From contig CAJXUF010000004.1 in assembly GCA_913061175.1 (NCBI GenBank), positions 1 through 43,834 of the forward strand: 43,834 bases of DNA. The letters are read 5' to 3'. Below, in pieces: positions 12,424-43,834 of this stretch (position 1 is the stretch's first letter; each line of letters starts with the position of its first letter). The position numbers and the translations under genes are program-made. The DNA comes from an uncultured Psychrobacter sp. Lineage in GTDB: Bacteria > Pseudomonadota > Gammaproteobacteria > Pseudomonadales > Moraxellaceae. Below the pieces are notes generated by a model. The model made no database searches. It had not been told where the DNA came from and saw nothing but the letters and a program-made list of their open reading frames with translations.

Positions 12424-12928
12424 ACTTTATCCTTGAGGTGTGGAGACTTAGAATGGGTTAAGAGGCTGGTATCTATATGGTTGTTAAATATATGACACTT
12501 TAAAATATATAGCTTTTAAAGCGTCTAAACCAGACAGTGTCGAGTATAATCGAACAATAGCAAAGTATCGACTATGATAACGTAAAATGTATGTACTTGT
12601 GAATCGCATTCTTAACCGATAGTTGTAAAGCTGTTAGCTATTATTTAAGGTATATTGCTCGTTACTTTCTGAACCTACTGTTTCTCAAACGTCTGCTTTA
12701 TTTCTATGTAAGATTTAAGACAGTCGAAAGTATCAGGATGCGATGTTGTCACGAGGATACGTACCTTTTCTATATCAAGATACTGCCCAAAAAACAGGGC
12801 AAAGTTTAAGCCTATTCACAATCGCTGACGATGTGCTTACGACAAAACTGCTACTCTCATGCTAATATTAAGCACATAATCGTGCACTGTAAACGATAAT
12901 AACGATAGTGACAATCAAGGAACATACC
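12424..12928. other. 505-bp divergent intergenic region (dsbA/ubiG)
   Basis: AT-rich spacer holding the promoters of dsbA (leftward) and ubiG (rightward). I see no credible reading frame, RNA gene or strong inverted repeat in it, and no promoter close enough to consensus to name. Confidence 0.5.
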
Positions 12929-13756
12929 ATGAGCTCAGCTTTAAATTCTTCATCAACTTCGAGTGATCAAAATAACAATAGCACTTTCAATAGTACAGAG
13001 TCTAACACCATCAACGTAGATCCTAGCGAAGTCGAAAAATTTAATAACTTGGCGAGTGAATGGTGGAGCAATACAGGTGCCTTTGCAACGCTACACGAGA
13101 TCAATCCATTACGTTTAAACTGGATAGAAGAAAACGTCAAACGTGGCTATCAAAACGCTGCTAATAAAACCGCTGAGCAAGGACTTTCTGGCAAAAAAGT
13201 ACTCGATGTAGGGTGCGGCGGCGGAATATTGTCAGAATCTATGGCACGCCGTGGTGCTGATGTGACAGGGATTGATTTAGGTACAGAGAACCTAAAGGCT
13301 GCTGCGTTACATGCAGAGCAAAGCCAGTTGGAGAGTACGCTTCGTTATCAGCATATACCCGTTGAAGAGTTGGCAAAAACACATGCTGGTCAGTTTGATA
13401 TGGTGACTTGCATGGAGATGCTAGAGCATGTGCCAGATCCTAGCTCGATTGTGCAGGCTTGTTATGAGTTATTGGCTCCTGGCGGCGTCTGTGTGTTATC
13501 AACGATTAATCGCAATCCTAAGTCTTATCTGTTTGCCATCGTTGGTGCAGAGTATGTGCTGCGATTGCTTGATCGCGGCACCCATGACTATGCCAAATTT
13601 ATTACACCAGCTGAATTAGACAAAATGGCACTTAATACTGGATTTGTTCGTCAGGATATTATCGGTTTGCATTATAATCCGCTGACCAAACGCTACTGGC
13701 TTGCCCAAAACGTCGATGTTAACTATATGATAGCCGTACAAAAGCCATTGGTTTAA
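12929..13756 (+). CDS. ubiG: ubiquinone biosynthesis O-methyltransferase
   Basis: SAM-dependent methylation of both ring hydroxyls in ubiquinone synthesis. 275 residues. The first 30 are a Ser/Asn-rich, probably disordered leader, followed by the family opening VDPSEVEKFNNLASEWW and LHEINPLRLNWI. Motif I is VLDVGCGGGI (91-100), then GADVTGIDLG, CMEMLEHVPDP and LAPGGVCVLSTINRN. The frame is open back to a GTG at 12908, but ATG 12929 is preceded by AAGGA at good spacing and is preferred. It is followed by mupP and an SDR gene, the order seen in pseudomonads. Confidence 0.95.
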   Translation: MSSALNSSSTSSDQNNNSTFNSTESNTINVDPSEVEKFNNLASEWWSNTGAFATLHEINPLRLNWIEENVKRGYQNAANKTAEQGLSGKKVLDVGCGGGILSESMARRGADVTGIDLGTENLKAAALHAEQSQLESTLRYQHIPVEELAKTHAGQFDMVTCMEMLEHVPDPSSIVQACYELLAPGGVCVLSTINRNPKSYLFAIVGAEYVLRLLDRGTHDYAKFITPAELDKMALNTGFVRQDIIGLHYNPLTKRYWLAQNVDVNYMIAVQKPLV

Positions 13757-14534: not shown

Positions 14535-14609
14535 ACTGCTGTATATCACCAGTTTTACAACCATAAGCACATATCCTCAACGATTTAATGATAAGTAGTG
14601 AGCAATGCC

Positions 14610-15446
14610 ATGAGTGACAATAATAATCAACCAGTCGATCCACAAGACAATAAAAAAACTGTTCAGAGTCCTATTCATCCTTTGACTCATGATGATATTC
14701 GTAGCTTTGTACCGTCAAGTAACTGCCTAGATGGTAAGACTATTTTGGTGACTGGTGCGGGGGATGGTATTGGCCGTGTTGCTGCATTGACCTATGCGCG
14801 TTATGGTGCCACTGTTTTATTGTTAGGACGCACTAGTAGCAAGCTTGAATACGTTTACGATGAGATTGAGAGCCTTGGAGGTAAGCAGCCTGCTATGTTG
14901 CCGATGAATCTAGAAGGAGCGACTTATGCTGAAATGCAGCAGCTTGAAGGGCTAATTAATAAAGAAATCGGCCAATTAGATGGTATCTTGCATAATGCTG
15001 GTGTATTAGGTCAACTGACGCCGCTTGAGATGTATGACGTCGATACTTTTGCCCAAGTGATGAAAGTAAATTTCACAGCGACTTTTATGCTGACTCAAGC
15101 GCTATTGCCGCTATTAAAAGATGCTGATCATGGCTCTGTTGTTTTCACCTCTAGTACAGTAGGCACACATCCTCGCGCATTTTGGGGGGCTTATGCTCTC
15201 TCCAAACAAGCAGTAGAAGGTATGAGTGATATCTTTACTCAAGAGACGCAGAACACAACCAATCTACGTTTTAACTGTGTTAACCCGGGTGGTACTCGTA
15301 CCAATATGCGCGCCCATGCGTATCCAGGTGAAAACCCTATGAGTTTAAAAACACCTGAAGATATCATGGCAAGTTATGTCTGTCTGATGAGTGATGAAAG
15401 TATTGGCGTACGTGGGCAAGTGATTGAGTTACAGCCTAAAGATTAG
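14610..15446 (+). CDS. yciK: short-chain dehydrogenase/reductase, YciK-like
   Basis: Classical SDR of unknown substrate. 278 residues: a polar leader of about 40, then the cofactor loop TGAGDGIG (48-55), NAG (129-131), and the catalytic Ser181/182, Tyr195 and Lys199 in YALSK. VNPGGTRTNMRAHAYPGENP is the YciK-type C-terminal stretch. Downstream of ubiG-mupP as in pseudomonads, but no family function is established. Start is uncertain between GTG 14598 and ATG 14610; neither has a strong ribosome-binding site. Confidence 0.85.
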   Translation: MSDNNNQPVDPQDNKKTVQSPIHPLTHDDIRSFVPSSNCLDGKTILVTGAGDGIGRVAALTYARYGATVLLLGRTSSKLEYVYDEIESLGGKQPAMLPMNLEGATYAEMQQLEGLINKEIGQLDGILHNAGVLGQLTPLEMYDVDTFAQVMKVNFTATFMLTQALLPLLKDADHGSVVFTSSTVGTHPRAFWGAYALSKQAVEGMSDIFTQETQNTTNLRFNCVNPGGTRTNMRAHAYPGENPMSLKTPEDIMASYVCLMSDESIGVRGQVIELQPKD

Positions 15447-40185: not shown

Positions 40186-41154
40186 ATGATCGATATGACG
40201 TCAGTGCCAAACGGTTGGGTGTGTCTGTACCCACAAGTCAGCAGTGCGACCAGCCAAACGGTAACGATGTCTTTAGATAATCGTGGGCTGGCATACGCTG
40301 ACGGTTTTTTTACCACCATGGGTGTCATTGATGGGTTGATACTATGGTCAGATTATCATTATCGGCGGCTTGTCTCTCATGCTGAAGCCTTGCAGCTCAA
40401 TATAAACAGCGAAGAGCTATTAGCCGTACTGCAACTGTATGCCCAGCAGTTAGAGCAAGGTATGCTCAAGCTAGTAGTCACTCGCGCTGCGCAGAATGTA
40501 CGCGGTTATGGTTATATACCTAATGCAAATGGTAGCGACTGTGAGATATGGTTAAAGGCTACCGCAATGAGAGTTTCTACTGCGCTGCAATTGTCTTTGC
40601 CTGATGGAAACTTGGTACCCATCCAACCTTATGCTTCGGCAATATGTTTGTCTTCCCAAATTGCTTGCTTACCGCCACCGTTGGCAGGTCTCAAGAGCCT
40701 TAATCGTTTAGACAATGTCCTCGCTAGTGGTGAACTACAGCGGATAAAAGCTGAGCCATTGGCGTCAAATCTTGCTTCAACACTTAGTGAAGGTCTGCTA
40801 CGTGATATGAGCGGGCAGTGGGTTGAGGGTACGATGAGTAACGTATTCTATCAATTGGCAGAAGCGCCACTATCAGAATCCAAAACTACCTCTAGTACTC
40901 ATAAAGATGATGAAAACTACTACCTAACCACCGGTCAATGGTACACCCCTTCTATGGCTCAATCGGGTGTTGCTGGCGTCATGCGTCAAGTAATTATAGA
41001 TGCGCTATCCACGACGCAATATCCAGTCAGAATCAGGTCGCTACAAGATGAGGATTTGCCTAAGTTAACGCAGCTCTTCTTTTGCAATGCACTGCGCGGT
41101 ATCATGCCAATGAGCAGTCTGACGTTATTGTCAGGTGATGTTGTGGATTTTTAA
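40186..41154 (+). CDS. pabC: aminodeoxychorismate lyase (fold-type IV PLP enzyme)
   Basis: Releases pyruvate from aminodeoxychorismate to give p-aminobenzoate for folate. 322 residues, longer than the E. coli enzyme through insertions around 185-210 and 228-250. Markers: SLDNRGLAYADGFFTTMGV (family D-R-G-x-x-Y-G/A-D-G), the PLP Lys170 in LAGLKSLNRLDNVLA, and EGTMSNVFYQL (E-x-x-x-S/T-N). It starts 3 bp after the lipoprotein stop (ATG 40195 also possible). In related bacteria pabC is commonly followed by mltG and tmk; here a leftward DpnD-like gene and the DpnI cassette follow. Confidence 0.92.
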   Translation: MIDMTSVPNGWVCLYPQVSSATSQTVTMSLDNRGLAYADGFFTTMGVIDGLILWSDYHYRRLVSHAEALQLNINSEELLAVLQLYAQQLEQGMLKLVVTRAAQNVRGYGYIPNANGSDCEIWLKATAMRVSTALQLSLPDGNLVPIQPYASAICLSSQIACLPPPLAGLKSLNRLDNVLASGELQRIKAEPLASNLASTLSEGLLRDMSGQWVEGTMSNVFYQLAEAPLSESKTTSSTHKDDENYYLTTGQWYTPSMAQSGVAGVMRQVIIDALSTTQYPVRIRSLQDEDLPKLTQLFFCNALRGIMPMSSLTLLSGDVVDF

Positions 41155-41166
41155 TCCGTTTAGTTG

Positions 41167-41364
41167 TTATTGAAAAACAACAAATTTGGTATCAATAAAA
41201 TCATCTGGATATAAAACCACTTGCTCATTTCTATACATTTCTTGCGCTTTCAAAAGGGCACTTTGCTCATCTTCTGCGACAACATCCACGATAGTGCTTA
41301 ATGTTTCGACAATTTCAACTTGAAAGGTTTGTGCTGCCTTTTTATCTTTTCTTATTATATTCAC
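41167..41364 (-). CDS. DpnD/PcfM-family small protein
   Basis: 65 residues: FQVEIVETLSTIVDVVAEDEQSALLKAQEMYRNEQVVLYPDDFIDTKFVVFQ follows the DpnD-PcfM pattern (V-x-I-x-E-T-L...V-x-V-A-x-x-E-x-A...K-x-x-Y-x-x-x-x-I/V-V-L-x-x-x-D-x-x-D-T-x-F). The first member was named from the pneumococcal DpnI cassette, where dpnD accompanies the endonuclease gene; its function is not established. Here a DpnI homologue lies 1.6 kb away on the same strand, with two unknown genes on the opposite strand between them. The start is GTG 41364, with no ATG alternative. It diverges from the first paralogue, sharing the 143-bp control region, and converges with pabC. Confidence 0.8.
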   Translation of the reverse strand: MNIIRKDKKAAQTFQVEIVETLSTIVDVVAEDEQSALLKAQEMYRNEQVVLYPDDFIDTKFVVFQ

Positions 41365-41430
41365 ACTCGATTCTCATATATCACTTCAGTCATTTATACC
41401 AAGTAGATTAGCAAAAGCCCTCAAAACAAG

Positions 41431-41480
41431 TGATCGTCTTTTGTTACGCAGACTTGTGCCATAAAGCAAATCGATCAATG
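41431..41480. promoter_or_regulatory. duplicated GATC-bearing upstream module, copy 1
   Basis: TGATCGTCTTTTGTTA (41431-41446) and AATCGATCAATG (41469-41480) recur exactly, with the same 22-bp spacing, at 42314-42363 upstream of the second paralogue. The spacer itself is largely different (9 of 22 positions agree by hand count), so the two blocks look selected. TGATCG in the first block and CGATCA in the second are inverted to one another, with the two GATC sites 41 bp apart. This copy sits between the divergent DpnD-like gene and the first paralogue and could serve both. Confidence 0.65.
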
Positions 41481-41507
41481 CTGCTTATCTAATAAGGAGA
41501 TAAGCCA

Positions 41508-42074
41508 ATGTACGAAGTTTATGAAGATGAAAGTATCCCGCTACAAATCCGTCGTTTGATGGTTTTTGATGAAATCTGTAAATTAGCGAAGAAAGAACCT
41601 GATGAAATTATTCATTTATCAAAATTTACTCAGTTATCACTCGGAGTTATGTATCTAAAGGATTTTAAGAAATTTATAGCCTTTGGTGGTGTGTTTGAGT
41701 ATGCACAAACACCCGAAGAAGTTATTGAGCAACGTATTCGCATTTTTCCTAACGACGAGCCAGTAAAGTGCGCGCTGACTGTTAATCTAAAGCACTTTAC
41801 TCGCCCAGCTAGTACACCTATACAATTAGTGTGGTATTGGAATAAATATGTAAAGAATAGAATGCATGCTTATGTTGACTATCGTGAAGAAGTTTTCTTT
41901 CGGATAAATGATGAAATTGATTCGGATTACCCACCGCATAAGCTTCATGACCGTCTAGTTGCGACAGCTCGTCTGCCACTATGGGATGATAGAGATGAGT
42001 TAATTGCAGATGTATACCGCGACAATCAAGGCGAACCTAGACCTGAACGTTATAATGAAAGACGTCTGTTATAA
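41508..42074 (+). CDS. uncharacterised 188-aa protein, paralogue A of the DpnI cassette
   Basis: I do not recognise this family. 188 residues, soluble, without signal or membrane segments, rich in aromatic and charged residues. It aligns without gaps to paralogue B downstream (119 of 188 identical by hand count). The conserved parts are IPLQ(I/V)RRLM at the N-terminus, PDEIIHL, AFG.VF.YA, EEVIEQ, CALTVNL, HAY(V/I)DYREE and above all the invariant RLVATARLPLWDDRDELIAD near the C-terminus. The variable parts are 21-30 and 41-50. A strong AAGGAGA ribosome-binding site lies seven bases before ATG 41508. The context suggests an accessory role in methyl-directed restriction, unproven. Confidence 0.8.
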   Translation: MYEVYEDESIPLQIRRLMVFDEICKLAKKEPDEIIHLSKFTQLSLGVMYLKDFKKFIAFGGVFEYAQTPEEVIEQRIRIFPNDEPVKCALTVNLKHFTRPASTPIQLVWYWNKYVKNRMHAYVDYREEVFFRINDEIDSDYPPHKLHDRLVATARLPLWDDRDELIADVYRDNQGEPRPERYNERRLL

Positions 42075-42127
42075 TTCGAAATAATTACTATGTTATACGA
42101 AGCTCATAATTAAGTTACTACTTATAG

Positions 42128-42159
42128 TTATAGCTGCTAATAAATTTTAGCGGCTGTAA
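42128..42159 (+). other. RNA hairpin downstream of paralogue A
   Basis: A 13-bp stem (42128-42140 with 42147-42159, loop TAAATT) that is fully paired on the plus-strand RNA counting two G-U pairs. No U tract follows, so it is not a standard terminator. It lies 54 bp after the stop of paralogue A, in a 328-bp gap (42075-42402) otherwise holding only the second control module. Confidence 0.35.
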
Positions 42160-42313
42160 TATTATGATCTTGATACTGTGTTTATATGACGTATCAGCCT
42201 TCTTACATAAATCACCACTCGCCTTTGAGGCTCCGTCAATCGAAGTTAATGCACTGGTACTTTCGCAAGAAGTCTATTGAGTGATGCATATCTCCAATAA
42301 CGTTCTTCATAAT

Positions 42314-42363
42314 TGATCGTCTTTTGTTAATGAGTATTGCGTACTGATGTTAATCGATCAATG
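42314..42363. promoter_or_regulatory. duplicated GATC-bearing upstream module, copy 2
   Basis: Exact copies of the 16-bp block (42314-42329) and 12-bp block (42352-42363) found upstream of paralogue A, at identical spacing. The module ends 39 bp before the ATG of paralogue B, against 27 bp for A. TTGTTA inside the first block could be a -35, but neither copy shows a good -10 at 17 bp, so an operator is at least as likely. Confidence 0.65.
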
Positions 42364-42402
42364 ATTGAATTCTATCCAATACTATTTAACAGGGGATAAT
42401 AA

Positions 42403-42969
42403 ATGCGTACTACATATGAAGATCAACGAATTCCACTACAAGTTCGTAGATTGATGATATTTAATAAAGTTTGCTGTGCAGCGAAAAGAAACCCTGATGA
42501 AATAATTCACTTACCTTGTTATTCACAGATAGCATTTAGTATTGTTTATTCTAAGAAAGATAAAAAATACACAGCATTTGGGAGTGTGTTTAAGTATGCG
42601 CATACGCGAGAAGAAGTCATCGAGCAGGGTATCGACGTTATTGCTAATGATGAATTGGTGATGTGTGCATTGACGGTTAATCTAATTCCCTTTACCAAAC
42701 CTGCACGCAACTCGGTACAGCTGTTATGGCAGTGGAATCGCTATGTGTGTAATCGATTGCATGCTTATATTGACTATCGTGAAGAGCATTTTTTCAAAAA
42801 CAATGATGAAATTGATTGGGAGTATCCAGCACATAAGTTTCATCAGCGTCTTGTGGCTACTGCGCGATTACCATTATGGGATGATAGAGATGAGCTGATT
42901 GCCGATGTGTACCGTGACAAAAAAAGACAGCCAAGACCTAAGCACTACAACGAGAAGCGACTAGTATAA
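42403..42969 (+). CDS. uncharacterised 188-aa protein, paralogue B of the DpnI cassette
   Basis: Tandem duplicate of the gene at 41508, same length and no gaps in alignment; its family is unknown to me. Relative to A, it has more Cys (three in the first 40 residues: VCCAAK and LPCYS) and a more basic C-terminal end (KKRQPRPKHYNEKRL). The block RLVATARLPLWDDRDELIAD is unchanged, which points to a shared active or binding surface. Divergence at about 63% identity shows an old duplication with both copies kept intact. AGGGG precedes the ATG at seven bases. The last 9 bp overlap the end of the convergent DpnI gene, so the two transcripts must be complementary at their 3' ends. Confidence 0.8.
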   Translation: MRTTYEDQRIPLQVRRLMIFNKVCCAAKRNPDEIIHLPCYSQIAFSIVYSKKDKKYTAFGSVFKYAHTREEVIEQGIDVIANDELVMCALTVNLIPFTKPARNSVQLLWQWNRYVCNRLHAYIDYREEHFFKNNDEIDWEYPAHKFHQRLVATARLPLWDDRDELIADVYRDKKRQPRPKHYNEKRLV

Positions 42970-43725
42970 CTTTCGATAATGACCACGGCTCACAAATTCA
43001 ATGATGCCTTTATCTCGTAATACTTGTAACTGTTGGCGAATTTTATCTTTTACGTGCTTGTTTTCAGGATGTTTGAGCTGCAACTCATCAGCAAAAGCAT
43101 AAACTTGATTGAGAGAAAAACTGTCATCGAGTCGGTCGATACATTGCCAGACATCGAGTGTCCAACCGCGTGAAGCCATAGATTGCTTGCGTAAAAATAA
43201 AGTCTTTTGGAAATGTTGGGTGACATTTTCACGCGGTATAACTTGTTGGTCTTTGACCAAAAATACTTTGCCCGATTCGGGTACTTGGCGTAAGTCAATA
43301 TTGCAACCAACCCAACCTGCTCGTTTTGCCGTCACTGATAAGGGTTTACGCTTGACAATAATATCGGGTGTAAAGAAATGCTTGGGAATAATCAGAAAAT
43401 TATTGACGGTGTATTCTTTTGAGTAGGTTAAAAAGAAGAAGCTGGGATTATCCTTACTATTGATACGCTCAATCATCGTCTTATAAGCACCATCATTGAC
43501 AACATTGCTTAACTTAGCTTTTTTACTTTTCAGCTCATATTGCTCATTACAATTTTCGCAATAAAAATCAGCAACAGGTTTGTTATTAGCAAACTCAGCT
43601 AGCGATTGGGCGCTACAATTGGTGCAGTAACTATTTTCTTTTACCCATGCTTCGCTGAGTACACGAACTTTTTGAGGTTCAGAGTGATAGTTTTTAGCAA
43701 GACTTTGGTTGAAATGTAGGTTCAT
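42961..43725 (-). CDS. DpnI-like methyl-directed (Gm6ATC) restriction endonuclease
   Basis: Type IIM enzyme family that cuts GATC only when the adenine is methylated. 254 residues, the same length as pneumococcal DpnI. The N-terminal PD-(D/E)xK nuclease domain opens MNLHFNQSLAKNYHSEPQKVRVL; catalytic residues Asp53, Glu64 and Lys66 (VADFYC...YELKSKK) fall at the DpnI positions, with a zinc site formed by Cys34, Cys37, Cys56 and Cys59. FFFLTYSKEYTVNNFLIIPKHF and RKPLSVTAKRAGWVGCNIDL follow. The C-terminal winged-helix methyl-reader ends KIRQQLQVLRDKGIIEF and RGHYRKLY. Intact and apparently functional. Only 62 bp upstream remain before the adapter, so its promoter and any upstream partner may be missing. 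No GATC methyltransferase is in the window. Transfer is plausible given the accessory setting. Confidence 0.93.
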   Translation of the reverse strand: MNLHFNQSLAKNYHSEPQKVRVLSEAWVKENSYCTNCSAQSLAEFANNKPVADFYCENCNEQYELKSKKAKLSNVVNDGAYKTMIERINSKDNPSFFFLTYSKEYTVNNFLIIPKHFFTPDIIVKRKPLSVTAKRAGWVGCNIDLRQVPESGKVFLVKDQQVIPRENVTQHFQKTLFLRKQSMASRGWTLDVWQCIDRLDDSFSLNQVYAFADELQLKHPENKHVKDKIRQQLQVLRDKGIIEFVSRGHYRKLY

Positions 43726-43787: not shown

Positions 43788-43834
43788 CTGTCTCTTATAC
43801 ACATCTCCGAGCCCACGAGACGGACTCCTATCTC
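43788..43834 (-). other. Nextera i7 sequencing adapter (artefact)
   Basis: Reverse complement of bases 1-47, beginning CTGTCTCTTATACACATCT and including the same 8-base index. Not genomic. The 62 bp between it and the DpnI-like start codon are AT-rich, with no recognised feature. Confidence 0.97.

What the first reader, a model, noticed from the sequence alone, without database searches (positions are those of the whole stretch)
41167..43725. DpnI/DpnD-type methyl-directed restriction cassette in a Moraxellaceae chromosome, with two extra unknown genes
A full-length DpnI homologue with nuclease residues D53/E64/K66 and four zinc cysteines lies in the same cassette as a DpnD/PcfM-family small protein, the two protein types of the pneumococcal DpnI cassette. 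Between them, on the opposite strand, are two tandem 188-aa paralogues of a family I cannot name. This architecture (dpnD-like, A, B, dpnI-like) may be an extended methyl-directed defence system.
Basis: partly seen in the sequence, partly recalled or inferred. Interest (0 to 1): 0.82.

Follow-up and report, generated by a model that had tools for sequence, protein, structure and literature searches.

The report
Swappable methyl-DNA defence cassette in Psychrobacter
Psychrobacter bacteria carry, at one fixed chromosomal site, a gene cassette whose enzyme is predicted to cut methylated foreign DNA; some relatives hold a system predicted to methylate the same sequence instead, and the cutting version usually includes an unknown gene family behind a strongly conserved, presumed control element built around that same sequence, GATC.

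Summary
The window's right end carries dpnD (PF14207), two 188-aa paralogues (63% identical, no known family) on the opposite strand, and a full DpnI. The genus is Psychrobacter. In 105 Psychrobacter genomes the 188-aa family ('X') occurs in 65, with DpnI in 64 of them; in all 62 readable DpnI+X loci X is convergent to dpnI. The site (pabC to mltG) is a swap site: 84 genomes hold DpnI (some only fragments), 11 hold a GATC-type methyltransferase restriction cassette, six hold neither. Flanks of 93-96% identity end cleanly at the cassette, and five DpnI loci keep a truncated DpnA-type methyltransferase. This repeats the pneumococcal DpnI/DpnII alternation. New here: X, and a rigid 48-bp element with two GATC sites 41 bp apart upstream of it. 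The exact element occurs nowhere else in the 105 genomes and also precedes an unrelated gene that takes X's place in two. X is under purifying selection, recombines in modules, and was found only in Psychrobacter. Its function is not shown. My best reading is control of DpnI when GATC sites are methylated; a direct defence effector is the main rival. New variant of a known kind.

The parts
40186..41154 (+). pabC-like aminotransferase class IV gene: conserved left flank of the swap site (not part of the cassette)
   Evidence: PF01063 3.7e-30; found in 103 of 105 Psychrobacter genomes; homology of L112 with three methyltransferase loci breaks just after its stop codon
41167..41364 (-). dpnD-like gene, 65 aa
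   Evidence: PF14207 1.4e-11; 74 of 105 Psychrobacter genomes, 73 of them with DpnI
41431..41478 (+). 48-bp GATC-flanked element upstream of gene A (GATC at 41432-41435 and 41473-41476)
41483..41505 (+). predicted leader hairpin of gene A overlapping the ribosome-binding region
   Evidence: the L098 leader, same letters as window A in the listing: -8.6 kcal/mol, z -3.0 against mononucleotide shuffles; prediction only
41508..42074 (+). X gene A, 188 aa, family without a name
42314..42361 (+). 48-bp GATC-flanked element upstream of gene B
42403..42969 (+). X gene B, 188 aa; a chimera (N part of the 164-aa type, C part of another 188-aa type)
   Evidence: residues 1-69 100% identical to the 164-aa protein of L116, remainder 97% to L155 and L119
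42961..42969 (.). 9-bp overlap of the 3' ends of X gene B and dpnI (convergent)
   Evidence: overlap of exactly 9 or 4 bp in 45 of 62 DpnI+X loci
42961..43725 (-). dpnI-like gene, 254 aa, methyl-directed restriction endonuclease
   Evidence: PF06044, PF17726; PADLOC mREase_II; 4esj 3.8e-98

Best explanation
It is the Psychrobacter form of the DpnI methyl-directed restriction cassette, sitting in a chromosomal swap site (pabC to mltG) where it alternates with a DpnM/DpnA-type GATC methyltransferase restriction cassette. DpnI cuts G(m6A)TC in incoming DNA; no Dam-type methyltransferase was found in the host, so its own GATC sites should be safe (inferred from families). X is an accessory of the DpnI version only. 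Its 48-bp element with two conserved GATC sites is most likely its promoter or operator. I propose that methylation of those sites (when the cassette recombines into a GATC-methylated chromosome, or when a methyltransferase enters) changes X expression, and that X protein together with transcription running convergently into dpnI holds DpnI back until the methylation is diluted: an entry-control device that makes cassette exchange survivable. Shown by sequence: gene identities, swap, co-location, convergence, element, purifying selection. Inferred: that the element is a promoter, that it senses methylation, that X restrains DpnI.
For: Families. No PF02086 methyltransferase in the window's own genome (assembly 89.6% complete). 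Swap: DpnI match in 84 of 105 genomes including fragments, beside pabC in 82 of the 84 (81 fetched loci, plus the window; the contigs of G256 and G271 break inside the cassette); PF02086 methyltransferase at the site in 11 of 105, with no dpnI, dpnD or X remnant there. Two representatives tested: best solved match DpnM 2dpm (3.1e-87 and 2.4e-48); the partner of one matches CcrM and DpnA; in G330 the site holds a PF04556 DpnII nuclease (8.7e-92). Flanks 93-96% identical on both sides; in three comparisons with L112 the breaks lie right after pabC and 65-81 bp before mltG. Five DpnI loci (L093, L096, L115, L119, L177) keep a DpnA-type methyltransferase truncated at its N end between pabC and dpnD. 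X with DpnI in 64 of 65; 62 of 62 readable DpnI+X loci convergent, 58 of 58 with dpnD to the left on the other strand. Element: 71 hits in 63 of 105 whole genomes, reversed-pattern control 0; 69 hits fell in the fetched site loci and two are the window's own, so all lie at this site. Without requiring GATC, both GATC sites are present in 22 of 25 non-redundant upstream regions, the three exceptions being second-copy X genes. GATC upstream of X 167 against 45.5 expected, although GATC is depleted in the window (94 against 163.7). The same element precedes the unrelated gene that replaces X in two genomes, so promoter plus convergent orientation may be what is conserved. X dN/dS median 0.11.
Against: No expression, methylation or activity data exist here. 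DpnI hosts should have no steady GATC methylation, so a methylation-sensitive promoter could act only in rare events; the GATC pair may simply be part of a site for an unrelated regulator. No canonical sigma-70 promoter was called at the element. 20 of 84 DpnI genomes have no X, so DpnI does not need it. Nine of 84 DpnI genomes have some PF02086 match, four of them strong (below 1e-50) and outside the site (three beside a PF04556 nuclease) with an intact DpnI ORF; only one of the four has X, so X is not what lets them coexist. The modular shuffling of X suits an arms-race effector at least as well. The X fold matches nothing clearly.
Confidence: 0.4

Rival explanations
1. X is a defence effector that works beside DpnI: a protein that blocks phage or invading DNA by its own route, with modules shuffled by recombination under phage pressure.
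For: Co-location with DpnI in 64 of 65; purifying selection; mosaic X proteins such as window B; replacement of X by an unrelated gene of similar size behind the same element in two genomes looks like cargo exchange; predicted leader hairpins over the ribosome-binding region would keep a harmful product low; a weak, below-cut-off similarity of 4 of 18 X proteins to PF20797 HepT-like_2 (best 0.022) is at most a lead.
Against: X matches no PADLOC or PHROGs family above chance and has no relative in the plasmid or phage collections or viral contigs. Outside Psychrobacter the only hit in 243 other Moraxellaceae genomes is 52 residues with stop codons at 4.8e-4, and none in 368 other genomes sampled from the class. 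It was not found in genomes with the alternative cassette at the site.
Confidence: 0.27
2. X serves a function unrelated to methylation or defence; it is held at the site by chance and linkage, and the GATC sites are only part of a binding site for an ordinary host regulator.
For: DpnI hosts should not be GATC-methylated at steady state; much of the 48 bp is conserved, not the GATCs alone; many of the loci are related by descent, so co-occurrence counts are not independent.
Against: X is missing wherever the site holds the methyltransferase cassette (0 of 11) or neither (0 of 6); in the most diverged loci (L138, L151, L167, L172) the two GATCs and their spacing survive while the middle changes; the exact element appears nowhere else in 105 genomes.
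Confidence: 0.2
3. The 48-bp element is not a promoter but a recombination or protein-loading site used in exchange of the cargo gene between dpnD and dpnI.
For: Inverted TGATCG/CGATCA ends, rigid length, same element before two unrelated cargo genes, and one X-less locus (L149) that keeps it.
Against: It lies a short distance before the start codon (mostly 29-44 bp), was not found on the far side of the cargo, and is missing from second X copies that follow the first closely, as expected of a promoter.
Confidence: 0.08

Closest known systems
Pneumococcal DpnI (dpnC-dpnD) and DpnII (dpnM-dpnA-dpnB) alternative cassettes
   Same: Methyl-directed nuclease plus DpnD; a double-strand and a single-strand GATC methyltransferase with a nuclease as the alternative (PMC3573125 and PMC8515895, passages seen; Lacks 1986 seen only as a reference title). 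Exchange at one chromosomal site, tested here for Psychrobacter.
   Different: Psychrobacter places the X gene and its GATC element between dpnD and dpnI on the opposite strand. The alternative cassette carries an HTH gene like restriction control proteins (tested in L181) and exchanged nuclease genes; only one of 11 sites (G330) has a PF04556 DpnII nuclease.
Neisseria drg (dam replacing gene) at the leuS/dam locus
   Same: DpnI-family nuclease replacing or disrupting a GATC methyltransferase gene at a fixed site (PMC4269198 passages; PMC516771 start of abstract in a listing).
   Different: No DpnD, X or GATC element was mentioned in the passages seen; Neisseria was not compared by sequence here.
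Dam-controlled promoters such as agn43 and Mu mom (recalled; agn43/OxyR papers seen only as a search listing)
   Same: Two or three GATC sites at a promoter.
   Different: Here no Dam was found in the host and the cassette encodes a nuclease against methylated GATC; methylation control is a hypothesis only.
B. subtilis YkuJ fold (2ffg, 9a74)
   Same: A 164-aa X protein (L209) aligns over 74 of 79 residues, Z 5.3, rmsd 3.8; window A over 72 residues, Z 4.5, rmsd 3.7.
   Different: Z is below 8, sequence identity 6-7%, models of medium confidence (pLDDT 66.4 and 72.5); no relation is claimed.

Membership tests
DpnI-type methyl-directed restriction endonuclease | PD-(D/E)XK catalytic domain with D53, E64, K66 | tested here: met
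   PF06044 match and residues present; motif (E or Q allowed) in 70 of 70 loci with a dpnI ORF over 700 nt
DpnI-type methyl-directed restriction endonuclease | C-terminal winged-helix domain | tested here: met
   PF17726 1.5e-33
DpnI-type methyl-directed restriction endonuclease | cuts only methylated GATC | not testable with these tools
   needs an enzyme assay
DpnI-type methyl-directed restriction endonuclease | host without GATC methyltransferase | tested here: met
   no PF02086 match in the window's own genome, 89.6% complete; in the genus 9 of 84 DpnI genomes have some PF02086 match, 4 a strong one
DpnD/PcfM family | PF14207 match above cut-off | tested here: met
   44.6 bits against a cut-off of 25
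Complementary DpnI/DpnII cassette pair | both cassette types at one chromosomal site with homologous flanks | tested here: met
Complementary DpnI/DpnII cassette pair | alternative cassette has DpnM-type and DpnA-type methyltransferases | tested here: met
   PF02086 with best solved match DpnM in two representatives; PF01555 matching CcrM (best) and DpnA in one
Complementary DpnI/DpnII cassette pair | alternative cassette has an R.DpnII (PF04556) nuclease at this site | tested here: inconclusive
   met in G330 (L196, 8.7e-92); the nuclease candidates tested in the other ten sites have no PF04556 match, so ten sites use other nucleases, one type weakly like MutH (L195, 0.0067, below cut-off)
Known anti-phage family for X | match to a PADLOC, PHROGs, NCBIfam or Pfam model above cut-off | tested here: not met
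   window A and B; 18 members, Pfam; best 0.022 HepT-like_2
Dam-methylation-controlled promoter | GATC sites overlapping the promoter, conserved | tested here: inconclusive
   GATC pair conserved, but promoter not mapped and no sigma-70 match called
Dam-methylation-controlled promoter | expression depends on methylation | not testable with these tools
   needs a reporter assay
YkuJ-like fold | clear structural match | tested here: inconclusive
   Z 4.5-5.3 over 72-74 residues

The most novel reading that the evidence does not exclude
A methyl-directed restriction cassette that carries its own epigenetic safety switch: a GATC-bearing promoter reads the methylation state of the cell's DNA and, through X and convergent transcription, holds DpnI back until methylated GATC has been diluted out. 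It would be the mirror image of the control proteins that delay the nuclease in classical restriction-modification systems, and would explain how DpnI and GATC-methylating cassettes can replace each other without killing the recipient.
Probability: 0.22. Interest if true: 0.85.

Novelty: new variant of a known kind. Interest (0 to 1): 0.62.

Why it matters
How a cell survives the switch from a GATC-methylating to a methyl-GATC-cutting system is a puzzle posed by the pneumococcal cassettes: a DpnI gene that recombines into a methylated chromosome should destroy it. Psychrobacter shows the same exchange between close relatives, with clean junctions and with leftover methyltransferase pieces, and adds a gene family and a GATC-built element that exist only in the cutting version. 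That makes the question directly testable with a few constructs. If X is instead a defence effector, it is a new family tied to a classic methyl-directed restriction enzyme.

Tried and rejected
Rejected: X as a member of a known family (no match above cut-off in Pfam, NCBIfam, PADLOC, PHROGs; no PDB sequence relative: best 0.11, none). Rejected: X as a mobile or phage gene (no plasmid, phage or viral-contig relative). Rejected: spurious ORF (dN/dS 0.11). Rejected: X as the necessary regulator of the element, since the element also precedes the unrelated gene c21 in two X-less genomes. DpnD as the necessary regulator is unlikely: G235 has X and the element without a PF14207 match. Fold search gave no confident match: Foldseek no E <= 0.001 against PDB or viral models; the C-terminal part (about residue 118 on) was poorly modelled and not tested alone. 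A second model, of a 164-aa X, was no better than the first. Rfam: nothing in the cassette. The leader hairpin (mean z -1.47 against mononucleotide shuffles; z below -1 in 22 of 38 distinct leaders, which are not independent) is suggestive only. Fisher p-values ignore common descent and are not used as proof.

Searches showed a PF04556 nuclease at the site in G330, and that L115 keeps a truncated methyltransferase, so the break lies inside that gene.

A literature claim 'not described in Psychrobacter' rests only on (no paper with DpnI, DpnII and Psychrobacter; 11 papers listed with Psychrobacter, restriction-modification and methylation; PMC3346939 was searched for terms, with no occurrence of GATC, Dam or DpnI; the other ten were seen as listing only), in an open-licence library.
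Full report
What is in the window. The last 2.6 kb of the window carries dpnD (41167-41364, minus), X gene A (41508-42074, plus), X gene B (42403-42969, plus) and dpnI (42961-43725, minus). DpnI is complete: PF06044 and PF17726, PADLOC mREase_II, solved DpnI 4esj over residues 1-253, residues C34, C37, D53, C56, C59, E64 and K66 in place by counting in the translation. DpnD matches PF14207. The two 188-aa proteins are 63% identical and belong to no family of the four libraries. The window's genome has no PF02086 methyltransferase match, as expected of a DpnI host, but the assembly is only 89.6% complete.

The genus and the spread of X. Near-identical loci carry Psychrobacter record titles. In the 348 family genomes searched, X was found in 65 of the 105 same-genus genomes and, in the other 243, only as one 52-residue hit with stop codons at 4.8e-4. 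A profile of 18 diverse X proteins found none in 368 other genomes sampled from the class. Plasmid, phage and viral-contig collections gave no relative. DpnI (PF06044) matches in 84 of 105 (in some only fragments, for example 33 residues in G277), DpnD in 74 of 105. X is with DpnI in 64 of 65 and with DpnD in 62 of 65; 20 of 84 DpnI genomes have no X. Counts are of related genomes and are not independent events.

Geometry. Gene order was read in the fetched loci. In 62 of 62 loci with a DpnI and an X match, the last X is convergent to dpnI; where dpnD was also matched (58) it lies on the other strand to the left of X in 58 of 58. The X and dpnI 3' ends overlap in 49 of 62 loci, in 45 of them by exactly 9 or 4 bp. 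Of the 20 DpnI loci without X, 11 have a dpnD match, 0-148 bp from dpnI in nine of them and 577 and 660 bp in the two that carry c21. So X sits between two genes that are otherwise neighbours; in three loci of another, unnamed Moraxellaceae genus dpnI and dpnD overlap (L236-L238).

A swap site. The left flank pabC is found in 103 of 105 genomes; the right flank is mltG (YceG) and tmk. DpnI lies beside pabC in 82 of the 84 DpnI genomes (81 fetched loci and the window); in G256 and G271 contigs break inside the cassette. In genomes without DpnI I fetched the site. Eleven of 105 hold a different cassette there: a PF02086 methyltransferase, a PF01555-type methyltransferase, a small HTH gene like restriction control proteins and a variable nuclease candidate (HTH and PF01555 tested in one representative, the rest by clustering). 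The best solved relative of the PF02086 protein is pneumococcal DpnM in both representatives tested, those of the PF01555 protein are CcrM, then DpnA. Nuclease candidates: PF04556 DpnII in G330; a 429-460-aa type (PADLOC REase_II in L193; DUF6997/DUF7226) in three; a 225-228-aa type in five, which reads by eye like MutH/Sau3AI and has only below-cut-off matches (MutH 0.0067 in L195, MvaI_BcnI 0.0019 in L183, none in three); a 174-178-aa PD-(D/E)XK-like type in two, also below cut-off. Six genomes hold neither cassette (G260, G268, G274, G311, G335, G338, the last with an RCC1-repeat ORF), two are rearranged (G281, G309), two had no pabC match (G315, G322).

Exchange. DNA comparison of a DpnI locus (L112) with a methyltransferase locus (L189) gives 94.7% identity over 3.6 kb on the left, ending just after pabC, and 94.6% over 4.4 kb on the right, starting 81 bp before mltG, and nothing between; L194 and L195 break alike, with 93.6-95.7%. 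This is whole-cassette replacement between close relatives. The pair L193/L115 (93.4-94.1%) breaks instead inside the DpnA-type methyltransferase gene: five DpnI loci (L093, L096, L115, L119, L177) keep residues 45 (or 58) to 276 of that protein between pabC and dpnD, without the DPPY motif at residues 38-41 (motif role recalled). So in these the DpnI cassette replaced most of a methyltransferase cassette. No remnant of dpnI, dpnD or X was found in the 11 methyltransferase loci. Between two methyltransferase loci (L189, L195) only the nuclease gene differs. GATC specificity of these methyltransferases is inferred from relatives and, at G330 and in three genomes elsewhere, from a PF04556 neighbour.

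Same theme in relatives. In L236-L238 dpnI and dpnD sit after a valS-like gene; a 113-aa C-terminal piece of a PF01555-like methyltransferase follows in all three, and a 72-aa N-terminal piece of a D12-like methyltransferase precedes in L236 and L237 (all by eye). Outside Psychrobacter 11 Moraxellaceae genomes have a DpnI match; I fetched eight of them (not G163, G164, G192), and none of the eight has X or the element.

The GATC element. Upstream of X lies a 48-bp element beginning TGATC and ending GATCAA. Over 105 whole genomes the fixed-length form has 71 hits in 63 genomes and none for the reversed control; 69 correspond to the site loci and two are in the window. The three hits not upstream of X are also at the site: two before c21, an unrelated 164-166-aa gene in X's place (L128, L156; no similarity to X), one in an X-less locus (L149). 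Because that pattern contains GATC, I aligned 25 non-redundant upstream regions without requiring it: both GATC sites are present in 22, and the three exceptions are second copies of X. In diverged loci (L138, L151) the GATCs and the spacing remain while the middle has changed. GATC occurs 167 times in 73 upstream regions of 200 bp against 45.5 expected, 3 times upstream of 70 dpnI genes against 46.7, and 94 times in the window against 163.7. Five X genomes lack the exact pattern: G302 (both GATCs kept, neighbouring bases changed), G312 and G313 (both GATCs kept), G239 and G321 (X fragments). The start codon is mostly 29-44 bp downstream. Leaders are predicted to fold over the ribosome-binding region. 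No sigma-70 match was called, so promoter function is an inference.

X protein. dN/dS median is 0.11 for X (54 pairs), 0.09 for dpnI, 0.114 for aroE, 0.16 for pabC, 0.27 for dpnD (one gene per locus, pairs limited to moderate divergence). X genes recombine: window B joins an N part 100% identical to a 164-aa type protein to a C part 97% identical to another type. Two AlphaFold2 models (window A, pLDDT 72.5; a 164-aa X, 66.4) agree on a core of helix, three main strands and helix up to residue about 115, with an unresolved C-terminal part. Only YkuJ stands out, at Z 4.5 and 5.3, too low to claim.

Mechanism. The cassette most likely acts as DpnI does: it cuts incoming GATC-methylated DNA in a host that does not methylate GATC. 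For X I consider three readings. Control of DpnI is favoured by the convergence with dpnI, by an element built on DpnI's own target tetranucleotide, by its restriction to the DpnI version of a swap site, and by reuse of the same element before an unrelated gene. A defence effector is favoured by module shuffling and cargo replacement. An unrelated function cannot be excluded. Against control: nine of 84 DpnI genomes have some PF02086 match, four of them strong, and only one of those four has X. I put control at 0.4, effector at 0.27.

Known and new. The DpnI/DpnII exchange is known from pneumococcus (PMC3573125, PMC8515895: passages) and a DpnI relative replaces dam in Neisseria (PMC4269198: passages; PMC516771: start of abstract in a listing). 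I found no paper that reports it for Psychrobacter in the searches named under Tried and rejected. X and the 48-bp element are, as far as these searches go, undescribed.

Noticed in passing
43788-43834: The window ends in letters that read as a Nextera/Tn5 adapter (recalled), so the last about 47 bases are not genomic and the contig stops about 62 bp upstream of dpnI.
   Followed up: partly
L203 (G241), L204 (G298), L207 (G273), L200 (G308): Four genomes carry an apparently intact DpnI ORF and also a GATC-type methyltransferase elsewhere, beside a PF04556 DpnII nuclease in three of them; this should be self-destructive and is unexplained.
   Followed up: partly
L093 3789-4484, L096 3695-4351, L115 6316-7011, L119 3617-4312, L177 3603-4298: Five DpnI+X loci keep an N-terminally truncated DpnA-type methyltransferase between pabC and dpnD, 90-97% identical to the version in methyltransferase cassettes.
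   Followed up: yes
L189 5105-5664 and L195 5159-5852: Within the methyltransferase cassette only the nuclease gene is exchanged (178 aa against a 228-aa type) while flanking DNA is about 95% identical.
   Followed up: partly
L236-L238: In a second, unnamed Moraxellaceae genus dpnI-dpnD lies after a valS-like gene between pieces of a methyltransferase cassette, apparently an independent DpnI replacement.
   Followed up: partly
L128 4795-5289, L156 5294-5788 (minus): c21, a 164-166-aa gene without a Pfam match (weak PHROG 874, 0.0012), takes X's place behind the same GATC element.
   Followed up: partly
window 1-43788: GATC is depleted: 94 seen against 163.7 expected from base composition.
   Followed up: no
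upstream of dpnI in 70 loci: The 200 bp upstream of dpnI hold 3 GATC against 46.7 expected, the opposite of X; the loci are related, so this needs a test with phylogeny.
   Followed up: no
12908-13756 and 14598-15446: Two ORFs of exactly 282 aa, both with GTG starts, flank a 236-aa ORF; possible tandem paralogues.
   Followed up: no
plasmid collection records NZ_CP119142.1 and NZ_CP119140.1: Two 2.17-Mb Neisseria gonorrhoeae records sit in the plasmid collection and gave the only full-length DpnI hits there; they look like chromosomes.
   Followed up: no
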